DNA from: Hypericibacter terrae
GTDB taxonomy: Bacteria; Pseudomonadota; Alphaproteobacteria; Dongiales; Dongiaceae
Length of the DNA: 64,000 nucleotides
Direction: 5' to 3'
Assembly (NCBI RefSeq): GCF_008728855.1
Contig: NZ_CP042906.1
Location: forward strand, 5,175,001 to 5,239,000
Part shown: positions 37,449 through 43,987 of the stretch, one piece after another
How the letters are laid out: each line of letters opens with the position of its first letter
Position numbering within the stretch: the stretch's first letter is position 1
Notes under the pieces: generated by a model
Database searches by the model: none
What the model was told of the DNA's origin: nothing
Seen by the model: the letters and a program-made list of their open reading frames with translations, nothing else
Translations under genes and position numbers: made by a program

Positions 37449-39209
37449 ATGATCGACAGAACCCCACCTGCGCCGAACGGAAAGGCCGATGACCTGCCCA
37501 CCAAGGCGCTGACGGGAGTCCCCGGATTCGACGCCCTTACCGACGGCGGCTTGCCGCAAGGCCGCGCGACGTTGCTCGCAGGCAATGCCGGCTCCGGCAA
37601 GACCGTGTTCGCCCTGCAGACCCTGGTCAATGCCGCGCGCGACCGTGGCGAGCCCGGCATCTTCGTCGCGTTCGAGGAAGACTCGAAACGAATCCTGGCC
37701 AATGCCCAGACCTTCGGATGGGATCTGCCGTCATTGCAACGGAAGAAGCTCTTCTTTCTCGACGCGCAACCGGATTACGACACCGTCCTTTCGGGTCAGC
37801 TCGATCTCGGGGGAATGCTCGCCGCCCTCGGCGCCAAGGTCGACGAGATGGGCGCGCGGTGGATCGCCTTCGACGCCATCGACGTCGTGTTCGCGCTGAT
37901 GGGCGACAGCGCACATGTGCGCCGGGAGATCTACCGCCTCAACGATTGGCTCATCGGGCGCGGCCTGACGGCACTCATCAGCGCCAAAGCCAATGCCGGC
38001 GGAGACACGGGGACCCCCCGAATTCTCGATTTCATGCAGTTCATGGTCGATTGCCTGATCATTCTCGGCCACGATCTCGTGGAAGGGACCTCGCAGCGCA
38101 ACCTGCGAATCGTCAAGTTTCGCGGTTCCGCGTTCGAGGAGAACGCCATTCCCTTCCTGATCGGCCCGAGCGGAATCGAGACCGCCTACGCCACCAGAGT
38201 CGCGCGCCCCGCGCTTCCGGCGACCCACGAGCGGGTTTCCAGCGGCATCGAACGGCTCGACGTCATGCTCGGCGGCGGCTTCTTCCGCGGCGGCAGCATC
38301 CTCATGACCGGGGGGCCAGGTACCGCCAAAACGACCTTATGTGGCGCGTTCTCCGAGGCCGCCTGCCAGCGCGGCGAGAAGACGCTGTTCGTCAGTTTCG
38401 ATTCCCGCATCGATGAAATGATTCGCGATCTCGGTTCGGTCGGGATCGGCCTGGACGCTTGGGTCAAGTCCGGGATGTTGCACATGATCTCGGCCCGGGC
38501 CATCAGCGGCAGTGCCGAAACCCATCTCATGCGGATCAGGAACGCCGCGCGGAAGCATGGCGCGCGCTGCGTGGTGATCGACCCCCTGTCCGCCCTGTCC
38601 AAGTTCGGCAATCGCGCCAGTTCGCTCGGCGTTGCGGAACGCCTGATCGACTGGGCCAAGAACGACGGCGTCACCTTGATGTGCACCAGCCTGCCCGACG
38701 AGACGATTCCCAACAACGATGCGACCCCGCTGCAAATTTCGACCATCGCCGACACCTGGATCAATTTGACGTACTTCGCGCGCGGCGGCGAGCGAAACCG
38801 GGCTCTATCCATCTTGAAATCACGGGGCACTGATCACTCCAACCAGGTGCGCGAAATGATTCTGAGTGGCGCCGGCGTGGCGTTGGCCGACGTCTATACG
38901 GCCGATGGCGAGGTGCTCATGGGTACAATGCGCTGGAGCAAGGAGCGCGACGAGCGGTTGTCGAGCGAGCGGGACGCGGCGGACAATCGGCTTCGGCGCC
39001 TCGGCCTGGAGGCGGAAGCCGCCGAGCTCGAAGCGCGCCTGGTGATGCTGAAGCGGGAAATCGTCCTGATCGGGGAGGAGCGAAAGACTCTCGTCAAAGA
39101 GGAGCACGAGCGGATCGACGATCTGGTCAGCAACGAGGTCGAGATGCGGAATCTTCGGGCGGCCAACAGTCCGGAAACGTCGAGCGAAGAATCGCCGGCC
39201 GATGATTGA
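37449..39209 (+). CDS. kaiC: KaiC family clock-like double ATPase
   Basis: The protein has 586 residues and two RecA-like domains. CI carries Walker A GNAGSGKT (45-52) and the catalytic pair Glu76-Glu77 (FEEDSK). CII carries a variant Walker A GGPGTAKTT near 284, and the residues matching the cyanobacterial pair Glu318-Glu319 are Phe317-Asp318. The phosphorylation segment QISTIADT keeps Ser431 and Thr432. The C-terminus has a long charged coiled coil (about 505-570). No KaiA is seen. The start at 37449 lacks a strong ribosome site; longer upstream frames are possible. It overlaps kaiB by eight bases. Confidence 0.92.
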   Translation: MIDRTPPAPNGKADDLPTKALTGVPGFDALTDGGLPQGRATLLAGNAGSGKTVFALQTLVNAARDRGEPGIFVAFEEDSKRILANAQTFGWDLPSLQRKKLFFLDAQPDYDTVLSGQLDLGGMLAALGAKVDEMGARWIAFDAIDVVFALMGDSAHVRREIYRLNDWLIGRGLTALISAKANAGGDTGTPRILDFMQFMVDCLIILGHDLVEGTSQRNLRIVKFRGSAFEENAIPFLIGPSGIETAYATRVARPALPATHERVSSGIERLDVMLGGGFFRGGSILMTGGPGTAKTTLCGAFSEAACQRGEKTLFVSFDSRIDEMIRDLGSVGIGLDAWVKSGMLHMISARAISGSAETHLMRIRNAARKHGARCVVIDPLSALSKFGNRASSLGVAERLIDWAKNDGVTLMCTSLPDETIPNNDATPLQISTIADTWINLTYFARGGERNRALSILKSRGTDHSNQVREMILSGAGVALADVYTADGEVLMGTMRWSKERDERLSSERDAADNRLRRLGLEAEAAELEARLVMLKREIVLIGEERKTLVKEEHERIDDLVSNEVEMRNLRAANSPETSSEESPADD

Positions 39210-39495
39210 CGCCCTCTCCACGGGAAAGTTCAGGCTCTATATCGCAGGCGACGCCCCGAATTCGCGGCGCGCCGTCGCCAACCTGACCGCGTTCTGCAAC
39301 CGATATCTGCCGAACCGCCATCATATCGAGATTGTCGACGTTTTCGAGCATCCGAAACGGGCGCTCGAGGAGGGAATCCTGCTGACGCCCCTGCTCGTCA
39401 TTGCTTCGGCGTCGCCGGCGAAGAGAATCGTCGGCGATCTGACCGATTCCTCCGTCCTGTTGGGCGCGCTCGGTATCGCCGCCGGTGCGTCGTGA
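39202..39495 (+). CDS. kaiB: KaiB family protein
   Basis: The protein has 97 residues, near full KaiB length. It has the thioredoxin-like fold start (FRLYIAGDAPNSRRAVANL), VDVFEHPKRALEEGILLTPLLV with the cis-Pro-like LTP, and SPAKRIVGDLTD. KaiB binds CI of KaiC during the clock cycle. It lies between kaiC and the hybrid kinase, sharing four bases with the kinase start (GTGA), which implies coupled translation. Confidence 0.93.
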   Translation: MIDALSTGKFRLYIAGDAPNSRRAVANLTAFCNRYLPNRHHIEIVDVFEHPKRALEEGILLTPLLVIASASPAKRIVGDLTDSSVLLGALGIAAGAS

Positions 39496-42734: not shown

Positions 42735-43987
42735 ACGCGAAGGTCTCACCACCGCGGCGATTGTTGATCTTCGACGACGATCCCGCCATCGGCCAGACCT
42801 TCGCCGCGATCGCGGAGACCGTGAACTTCGCATCCCATTCGGCGACACACTCCGAGGATTTCTTTCGGATTCTCAAGGAGTGGAATCCAACCCATATTGC
42901 ACTGGATCTTGTCATGCCGGGTGTCGACGGCATCGAGGCGCTGGGTTTGCTGGGCGACCTGAAATGCCGGGCCGAAATCATCATCACGAGCGGCATGGGG
43001 AGCCGGGTTCTCGACGCGGCCCGGCGCGCGGCCGCCGAACATGGGCTGTCCGTCGCAGGCGTCATAGCGAAACCCTTCCCCGCCGCGGAGCTTCGTGCGC
43101 TGCTGACGAAGACGCCTGTCGTGGTGCCAGCGGTCGGCCCCGCTCGCATACCCGTGCCGCAAGACGATCTCGGCGAATTCACCGAAGAAGAGCTGGCAGG
43201 AGCGCTCGATCGGCGCGAGTTGCGCGTCTTCTACCAACCTATCATAGAGTGCGCCGCCGGCGCGCTCGCTGGGTTCGAGGCGCTGGCTCGTTGGACTCGG
43301 GCCAATGGCCAGGCTGTCTCGCCCGATGTCTTCATCCCATTCGCCGAGAGTACGGGATTGATCGACCGCCTGAGCGATCAGGTCGTGAGCCAGGCGATGG
43401 CCTGGCTCACGGGCGCGTTTCCCGATACCGCGCTGCTCCTGTCCCTCAATCTCTCGGCCCGGTCCCTGAGCGACGAGACGCTGGCCGACCGCATCGCCCA
43501 GGCCTGCCGGCAGCATGCGATCGCTCCCGCCCGTATCATCCTGGAGATCACCGAGACCAGCGCGATGAGCCACTCGATCACGACGCTGGACCTTGTGACG
43601 CGTTTTCGGATCAAGGGATTCCAGCTCTCGATCGACGATTTCGGCGTCGGCTACTCCTCGCTGGTCCAACTGGCGCGATTGCCATTCTCCGAGTTGAAGA
43701 TCGACAAGACGTTCGTGATCTCCGCACAGAAGTCGAAAGAATCCCGCAGCATCGTCAAAGCGATCGTCAGCCTGGCCCACAGCCTCGAGCTGCGCGTGAC
43801 CGCCGAAGGCGTAGAGGACGAATGGACGCTCGGATTCCTCAAGGAGCTGCACTGCGATTTCGCCCAGGGCTTCCACATCAGCCGCCCCATGGAGGGCGGT
43901 GCAGCGGAGAAGTGGGTCCGGGAACGGATTTTGCCTGACCGGTACGGATCCGGCATCGACAGAGCGGACCCGATCCTCAAAACATAG
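42731..43987 (+). CDS. REC-EAL protein, cyclic-di-GMP phosphodiesterase
   Basis: The protein has 418 residues. A receiver domain covers about 10-125 with phospho-acceptor Asp in IALDLVMPG and Lys in IAKPFP. The EAL domain (about 150-405) retains the catalytic set: EAL in GFEALARW, Asn in LSLNLSARSL, Glu in ILEITETS, the DDFG loop IDDFGVGYSS, Lys in LKIDKTFV, Glu in TAEGVED and QGFHISRP at the end. It should hydrolyse cyclic-di-GMP to pGpG. It overlaps the kinase gene by four bases, so the operon links phosphorelay to second-messenger turnover. Confidence 0.93.
   Translation: MNAKVSPPRRLLIFDDDPAIGQTFAAIAETVNFASHSATHSEDFFRILKEWNPTHIALDLVMPGVDGIEALGLLGDLKCRAEIIITSGMGSRVLDAARRAAAEHGLSVAGVIAKPFPAAELRALLTKTPVVVPAVGPARIPVPQDDLGEFTEEELAGALDRRELRVFYQPIIECAAGALAGFEALARWTRANGQAVSPDVFIPFAESTGLIDRLSDQVVSQAMAWLTGAFPDTALLLSLNLSARSLSDETLADRIAQACRQHAIAPARIILEITETSAMSHSITTLDLVTRFRIKGFQLSIDDFGVGYSSLVQLARLPFSELKIDKTFVISAQKSKESRSIVKAIVSLAHSLELRVTAEGVEDEWTLGFLKELHCDFAQGFHISRPMEGGAAEKWVRERILPDRYGSGIDRADPILKT

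What the first reader, a model, noticed from the sequence alone, without database searches (positions are those of the whole stretch)
37449..43987. KaiA-less kaiC-kaiB operon fused to phosphorelay and cyclic-di-GMP output
Four genes overlap by 8, 4 and 4 bases: kaiC, kaiB, a multi-PAS hybrid kinase with receiver, and a REC-EAL phosphodiesterase with its whole catalytic set. KaiBC next to kinases is known in some bacteria, but a direct coding overlap to a c-di-GMP hydrolase suggests a timer whose output is second-messenger turnover. No kaiA is seen.
Basis: partly seen in the sequence, partly recalled or inferred. Interest (0 to 1): 0.78.

Follow-up and report, generated by a model that had tools for sequence, protein, structure and literature searches.

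The report
KaiBC operon ending in c-di-GMP hydrolase
A bacterium carries a probably acquired gene cluster in which clock-type proteins (KaiC and KaiB) sit in one operon with a sensor kinase and an enzyme that should break down the signal molecule cyclic-di-GMP; such neighbourhoods were already known in outline, but this arrangement, and a KaiC branch whose second motor domain lacks its usual catalytic pair, look like new variants.

Summary
kaiC (37449-39209), kaiB (39202-39495), a multi-PAS hybrid histidine kinase (39492-42734) and a REC-EAL gene (42731-43987) overlap by 8, 4 and 4 bases. No KaiA was found in the genome.

The exact order was not seen elsewhere: 0 of 40 other KaiC loci read, 31 of them uncut downstream, have a separate REC-EAL fourth. 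The c-di-GMP link does recur. The window KaiC forms a strongly supported clade with six Burkholderiales KaiCs (56-59% identical). In four of the six, the gene after kaiB is PAS-GGDEF-EAL; three of these have a degenerate GGDEF motif. In five of six, that gene shares the kinase's N-terminal ~200 residues. The clade's KaiC has D-S instead of the CII catalytic E-E pair.

In the congener an unrelated GST gene occupies the site, so the operon was probably acquired.

Prior art: De Luca et al. 2011 (PMC3164672) reported that clustered kaiC-kaiB outside cyanobacteria is almost always followed by a kinase or GGDEF/EAL gene. So this is a new variant of a known kind. Kai-to-kinase-to-REC-EAL signalling is plausible but inferred; a timer is not shown.

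The parts
37037..37072 (+). likely terminator of the upstream HerA-type gene: inverted repeat 37037-37050/37053-37066 followed by TTTTCTTT; separates the operon from the gene before it
   Evidence: inverted repeat; sequence. The simple terminator scan did not list it
37073..37448 (+). leader upstream of kaiC, presumed to hold the operon's promoter
   Evidence: position only; no sigma-70-like site on the + strand was found in the scan
37449..39209 (+). kaiC: two-domain KaiC, CI Glu pair E76/E77 intact; CII Walker A GTAKTT (A293), D318-S319 in place of the catalytic E-E, phosphosite pair S431-T432, C-terminal extension from about residue 496
   Evidence: PRK09302 450.5 bits, cut-off 408; best solved relative 8dba, R. 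sphaeroides KaiC
39202..39495 (+). kaiB, 97 aa; best-scoring relatives among those compared are the six Burkholderiales KaiBs
39492..42734 (+). hybrid histidine kinase: N-terminal module (about residues 4-202, a PAS-like region by my reading) shared with Kai-linked output genes of relatives; four further PAS stretches, HisKA (H719), HATPase_c, receiver (D1006)
42731..43987 (+). REC-EAL response regulator, predicted c-di-GMP phosphodiesterase with complete receiver and EAL residue sets

Best explanation
This is a probably horizontally acquired, KaiA-less KaiBC signalling operon whose outlet is c-di-GMP hydrolysis. KaiC/KaiB form an ATP/ADP-responsive assembly of the R. sphaeroides KaiBC general type. 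Its state is read by the N-terminal module of the PAS hybrid kinase encoded directly after kaiB. The kinase then sets the phosphorylation, and hence the phosphodiesterase activity, of the REC-EAL protein. In related operons the same N-terminal module is joined in one polypeptide to an EAL enzyme. Here the enzyme is a separate receiver protein, which inserts a phosphorelay between Kai and c-di-GMP. Because CII lacks both catalytic glutamates, the Kai part is more likely a switch or strongly damped timer than an oscillator. Shown: gene content, overlaps, residues, phylogeny, shared module, recurrence of EAL partners, variable chromosomal site. Inferred: every binding, phosphotransfer and enzymatic step.
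For: Overlapping four-gene operon with a likely terminator before it and a convergent gene after it. Catalytic sets intact in kinase, receivers and EAL. KaiC clade of window + 6 Burkholderiales at 99 SH-aLRT (40 rows) and 100/100 in a careful tree (34 rows). In that clade the kaiB-next gene is PAS-GGDEF-EAL in L096, L097, L098 and L099 and a hybrid kinase in L100. The 4-base kaiB/output overlap is shared by window, L096, L097 and L098. A 199-residue N-terminal fragment of the kinase hits the Kai-linked gene best in 5 of 5 relatives that have one; G756, without one, gives only a 90-bit hit to the PAS part. GGDEF is degenerate (GADHF) in L096, L097 and L098. The EAL set is intact in L096 and L098; L097 shows only its start because the contig ends. 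The ortholog of that EAL protein also follows kaiB in L065, whose KaiC belongs to another lineage (786 bits against 422 for the best control EAL protein).
Against: The strict four-gene order was found nowhere else (0 of 40, 9 of them cut early). The window EAL domain is no closer to the relatives' EAL outputs than to control EALs not beside kai genes, so the REC-EAL was recruited independently and could be a bystander. L025 has kaiCB with no linked output. L099 keeps an intact GGDEF motif, so hydrolysis is not certain for every relative. In G1006 the Kai-linked hit leads two PAS-only hits by only 134.4 to 132.9 bits. The kinase has its own receiver, so direct transfer to REC-EAL is not a given. 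The kinase has no KaiB-like (SasA) domain, so how it would read KaiC is unknown.
Confidence: 0.5

Rival explanations
1. The HK and REC-EAL are an ordinary PAS-sensing phosphorelay that happens to lie behind kaiCB; Kai and the relay share a promoter but no biochemical contact.
For: REC-EAL is not specially related to other Kai-linked EALs; EAL-domain response regulators are widespread, for example annotated on several plasmids (their neighbourhoods were not read); L025 keeps kaiCB without an output gene.
Against: The gene directly after kaiB keeps the same N-terminal module in window and five Burkholderiales, and the 4-base overlap in window and three of them; a kinase or EAL gene next to kaiCB recurs (PMC3164672).
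Confidence: 0.22
2. Kai controls the kinase, but the kinase signals through its own receiver or another partner (for example a ChpT-like phosphotransferase), and the REC-EAL is phosphorylated elsewhere or works constitutively.
For: The kinase is a hybrid whose best-scoring NCBIfam equivalog is CckA, a phosphorelay kinase (role from recall), at 373.7 bits under its cut-off of 1000; Pfam found no Hpt domain in the four proteins.
Against: 4-base overlap of kinase and REC-EAL genes; the order kaiC-kaiB-PAS kinase-CheY-like regulator is on record in Bradyrhizobium (table passage in PMC3899966), which suggests the neighbouring regulator is the partner.
Confidence: 0.2
3. A self-sustained circadian oscillator with c-di-GMP as output.
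For: KaiC with S-T phosphosites, KaiB and an output kinase are present.
Against: No KaiA; CII catalytic glutamates replaced by D-S in all 7 clade members, and mutating the equivalent pair in R. sphaeroides KaiC abolishes CII hydrolysis (PMC10076222 passages); the KaiBC-only R. sphaeroides system is described there as an hourglass.
Confidence: 0.04

Closest known systems
kaiC-kaiB loci with a downstream HK or GGDEF/EAL gene ('first kaiC-context', De Luca et al. 2011, PMC3164672; section 17 read, other passages)
   Same: clustered kaiC-kaiB outside cyanobacteria with a kinase or c-di-GMP gene directly downstream
   Different: there it is a kinase or a GGDEF/EAL protein; here a kinase and then a separate REC-EAL. 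CII D-S, the shared N-terminal module and the degenerate GGDEF are not in the parts read (figures are not held)
photosynthetic Bradyrhizobium kaiC-kaiB-PAS kinase-CheY-like regulator (BRADO1478-1481; table passage of PMC3899966)
   Same: four-gene order kaiC, kaiB, PAS kinase, receiver protein
   Different: the receiver is described as CheY-like there; here it carries an EAL phosphodiesterase
Rhodobacter (Cereibacter) sphaeroides KaiBC (PDB 8dba/8fwj; PMC10076222 passages; locus L030)
   Same: no KaiA, KaiC with C-terminal extension, kaiC-kaiB-kinase order
   Different: SFEE and S-S there, SFDS and S-T here; HWE kinase and no EAL gene in the 17.4 kb read there; about 38% KaiC identity
RocR/PvrR-type REC-EAL phosphodiesterases (PDB 3sy8; NCBIfam NF052596)
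   Same: REC-EAL architecture and residue sets
   Different: PvrR score 230.8 is far under its cut-off of 580; no Kai neighbours known to me (recall)

Membership tests
KaiA-less KaiBC system (R. sphaeroides type) | two-domain KaiC | tested here: met
   PRK09302 450.5 bits over its cut-off 408; 8dba aligned over residues 19-552. The other KaiC equivalog, TIGR02655, scores 268.5 under its cut-off of 546.25
KaiA-less KaiBC system (R. sphaeroides type) | KaiB next to kaiC | tested here: met
   PF07689 56.4 bits, cut-off 27; both NCBIfam KaiB equivalogs under cut-off
KaiA-less KaiBC system (R. sphaeroides type) | no KaiA in the genome | tested here: met
KaiA-less KaiBC system (R. sphaeroides type) | C-terminal coiled-coil extension of KaiC | tested here: inconclusive
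   91-residue tail, alignment with 8dba continues to query residue 552, helix 496-573 in a poor model (mean pLDDT 48); oligomer not testable
KaiA-less KaiBC system (R. sphaeroides type) | catalytic Glu pair in CII | tested here: not met
   D318-S319
KaiC2 subgroup | two serine phosphosites | tested here: not met
   S431-T432 in the window
SasA-type Kai output kinase | N-terminal KaiB-like domain | tested here: not met
   no PF07689 in the kinase; single KaiB place in the genome
REC-EAL c-di-GMP phosphodiesterase | complete receiver and EAL catalytic residues | tested here: met
REC-EAL c-di-GMP phosphodiesterase | hydrolyses c-di-GMP under phosphorylation control | not testable with these tools
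   needs enzyme assay

The most novel reading that the evidence does not exclude
A distinct KaiC branch whose CII domain has given up the standard catalytic glutamates while mostly keeping the phosphosite pair, and whose dedicated outlet is c-di-GMP hydrolysis. The same N-terminal reader module after kaiB is plugged either straight into an EAL enzyme, mostly with a dead GGDEF, or, as here, into a kinase that drives a separate REC-EAL. It would be a Kai device that reports cell energy state as c-di-GMP.
Probability: 0.28. Interest if true: 0.72.

Novelty: new variant of a known kind. Interest (0 to 1): 0.47.

Why it matters
What Kai systems control outside cyanobacteria is largely open (my judgement). 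If Kai proteins here set c-di-GMP hydrolysis, the readout is a simple biochemical one (pGpG formation, a c-di-GMP reporter) on a four-protein set that can be purified. The D-S clade also gives a natural test of whether CII catalysis is needed for Kai signalling at all. A recent paper found that c-di-GMP alters the S. elongatus clock, by its authors' account indirectly (PMC13001216, abstract and passages); a c-di-GMP enzyme inside a Kai operon would be a link in the other direction.

Tried and rejected
Conservation of the exact order: looked for in 40 KaiC loci with flanks, none found. In 9 of the 40 the held DNA ends within 1.8 kb after kaiCB (L068, L069, L075, L078, L079, L106, L108) or inside the next gene (L097, L100), so the fourth gene is unseen. 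Not all hits were read. Of 33 genomes with KaiC at E<=1e-60 in the phylum draw (own included), only the 10 best others were fetched. Of the 13 others with KaiB in the class draw, 10 were fetched. Of 15 KaiC matches in the order of G756, 13 were fetched, G756 was already L025, and G876 has the same coordinates as G619 (L073). One locus (L109) is. Of 286 plasmid records with a KaiC match, 5 were read.

Common origin of the window REC-EAL with the relatives' EAL outputs: rejected, as it is no closer to them than to ten control EALs.

Window KaiC as kin of the same-class KaiCs L062/L063/L109: rejected by AU test, p 0.0014 (the group was named after seeing the quick tree). The careful tree left out L066, L107, L075-L078 (long or partial rows) and the second KaiC-like ORF of L102. 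L064, whose KaiC is split, was in neither tree.

Mobile-element signs: no tRNA in the window. One search searched each edge by itself only. A comparison of the two edges found one 10-base direct repeat, CGGTCGCGCG, at 37027-37036 and 44017-44026, within a few bases of where the alignment with the congener stops and resumes (37022 and 44025). It could be an insertion scar but may well be chance in GC-rich DNA; no element was identified. Sigma-70 promoter scan: no + strand site. KaiC structure: model too poor (pTM 0.34) for a fold search. Literature searches for KaiC with EAL domain, c-di-GMP, GGDEF, and operon + phosphodiesterase listed no paper on a kaiC-kaiB-HK-REC-EAL operon that I could see; the two opened papers that bore on gene order were PMC3164672 and PMC3899966.
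Full report
OBSERVATION. kaiC runs from ATG 37449 to stop 39209, kaiB 39202-39495, the kinase 39492-42734 from a GTG, and REC-EAL 42731-43987. Overlaps are 8, 4 and 4 bases. Pfam and NCBIfam confirm the identities. The kinase carries four PAS stretches by Pfam and, by my reading, a fifth PAS-like region at its N terminus, then HisKA, HATPase_c and a receiver. The fourth protein is receiver plus EAL. Its EAL domain aligns with MucR 5m1t and the whole protein with RocR 3sy8; the receiver, kinase and EAL residue sets are complete by motif scan. Residue roles in these families are from recall. KaiA is absent from the 5.9-Mb single-contig genome while the control rings in S. 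elongatus. Only one KaiB-domain place exists, so the kinase has no KaiB-like SasA domain.

SURROUNDINGS. The gene before is a HerA-type ATPase (35457-37013). A 14-base inverted repeat followed by TTTTCTTT at 37037-37072 looks like its terminator, though the simple scan did not list it. The gene after, a TIM-barrel protein on the other strand, ends at 44028. In the only congener held (G014) the same two genes flank a different short gene with glutathione S-transferase domains, and not the Kai operon (DNA identity 82-85% on both sides). A 10-base direct repeat lies at the two edges (37027-37036, 44017-44026); it may be a scar or chance. KaiB was found in 2 of 17 genomes of the family, own included, and the other one is only 35% identical. 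The order search returned the same 17 genomes. G+C is 0.62-0.65 in the operon against 0.65-0.69 around it. Together this points to gain of the operon at a variable site, although loss in the congener is not excluded.

RELATIVES. A search of 349 genomes of the order of L025's genome found KaiC at E<=1e-75 in 14. Six of these, L025's own included, are 56-59% identical. In the KaiC tree the window falls with these six (99 SH-aLRT of 40 rows; 100/100 of 34 rows). A union with the three same-class KaiCs L062/L063/L109 is rejected (p-AU 0.0014). Whether the window or L100 branches first within the clade is weakly supported (95/39).

THE GENE AFTER kaiB. In L096, L097, L098 and L099 it is a PAS-GGDEF-EAL protein (with a receiver at the end in L099); in L100 it is a hybrid histidine kinase; L025 has none. 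The kaiB/output junction is a 4-base overlap in the window, L096, L097 and L098; L099 and L100 have short spacers. A 199-residue N-terminal fragment of the window kinase (residues 4-202) was searched in seven genomes. The Kai-linked gene was the best hit in 5 of 5 relatives that have one (43-54% identity, starting at fragment positions 3-11). The other hits start at 65 or later and cover the PAS part only, except the window genome's own second hit, which starts at 38. In G1006 the lead is small, 134.4 against 132.9 bits. So one N-terminal module sits behind kaiB with exchangeable output ends.

C-DI-GMP DIRECTION. At the GGDEF position L096, L097, L098 and L065 read GADHF or DADHF, and L064 SSRNF, while L099 and L066 keep GGDEF. 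The EAL set is complete by motif scan in L096, L098, L099, L065 and L066; L064 misses only the asparagine motif of my pattern and L097 is cut by the contig end. By inference those with a degenerate GGDEF are phosphodiesterases only, as the window REC-EAL would be; L099 and L066 could make or break c-di-GMP. L065's output is an ortholog of L096's (786 bits over about 900 residues; best of the control EAL proteins 422) although their KaiCs belong to different lineages. The window REC-EAL is not part of that family, so an EAL enzyme has been attached to KaiBC more than once.

NUMBERS. Over 40 other KaiC loci (L025, L027-L031, L062-L081, L096-L109), 39 have KaiB beside KaiC (none seen in L108). 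Seven have an EAL protein directly beside kaiCB on the same strand: L065 and L096-L099 after it, L064 and L066 before it. Two more have a GGDEF-only protein there (L068 before, L104 after). L029 has an EAL gene further downstream, after a kinase and a hypothetical gene, not counted. None has a separate REC-EAL fourth, but 9 of the 40 are cut too early downstream to show one. For scale, G756 has about 38 EAL places in 5.4 Mb (my count of the rows), so with about one gene per kilobase a given neighbour is an EAL gene in roughly 1 case in 100. The loci are related, were found with window queries and are a selection of the hits, so this is not an independent sample.

KaiC ITSELF. CI keeps its Glu pair in every aligned row that covers it except the second KaiC-like ORF of L102 (G-E) and L108 (E-D); L078 does not cover it and L064 was not aligned. 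In CII the equivalent of R. sphaeroides E302/E303 is D-S in all 7 clade members, D-E in L062, L063, L066 and L109, and E-E in the remaining rows, apart from the same L102 ORF, which reads E-Q. The phosphosites are S-T in the window and 5 of 6 relatives, S-K in L096. CII Walker A reads GTAK in the clade. R. sphaeroides E302Q/E303Q abolishes CII hydrolysis (PMC10076222, passages), and all cyanobacterial KaiC subgroups keep the glutamates (PMC5520375, passages). Whether D-S still supports phosphorylation is open. The KaiC model was poor; it shows a long C-terminal helix at 496-573.

KNOWN. PMC3164672 (section 17 read whole) states that, except for cyanobacteria, almost all clustered kaiC-kaiB show a kinase or a GGDEF/EAL protein immediately downstream. 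PMC3899966 (passages) tabulates kaiC-kaiB-PAS kinase-CheY-like regulator in Bradyrhizobium. What I did not find in print (open-access library only, mostly seen as listings) is the kinase plus REC-EAL form, the shared N-terminal module, the degenerate-GGDEF EAL partner and the CII D-S clade.

VERDICT. A real, probably transferred, KaiBC signalling operon with c-di-GMP hydrolysis as its likely outlet; a new variant of a known kind. The word timer should be held back until CII chemistry is measured.

Noticed in passing
L098 (G1007) 3912-15260: Three GGDEF-EAL genes lie around kaiCB within about 11 kb: REC-GGDEF-EAL-REC upstream, PAS-GGDEF(degenerate)-EAL directly after kaiB, and another GGDEF-EAL after that.
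   Followed up: partly
L026 (Lacisediminimonas profundi NZ_VTTH01000004.1) 9989-10270: Lone KaiB-like ORF lacking the first ~20 residues, with no KaiC found by tblastn within the 20 kb held; possible relic of a lost Kai operon.
   Followed up: no
L064 (G211) 9897-11439: KaiC is split into two overlapping ORFs between a GGDEF-EAL gene (degenerate GGDEF, SSRNF) and kaiB; frameshift or real split unknown.
   Followed up: no
window 56950-60300: G+C drops to 0.58 (56001-60000) over a patch with an ORF with a Schlafen/AlbA_2 domain (57667-59199) and one with an FRG domain (59433-60299); looks like a small mobile or defence island.
   Followed up: partly
L120 (congener G014) 5899-6519: A short gene with glutathione S-transferase domains occupies the slot that holds the Kai operon in the window.
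   Followed up: yes
window 37027-37036 and 44017-44026: A 10-base direct repeat (CGGTCGCGCG) sits at both edges of the operon, close to where similarity to the congener stops and resumes; scar or chance.
   Followed up: partly
L066 (G514) 4287-9450: A distant relative with CII D-E has a PAS-GGDEF-EAL gene ending 13 bases before kaiC and a GGDEF gene after kaiB, so c-di-GMP genes lie on both sides.
   Followed up: partly
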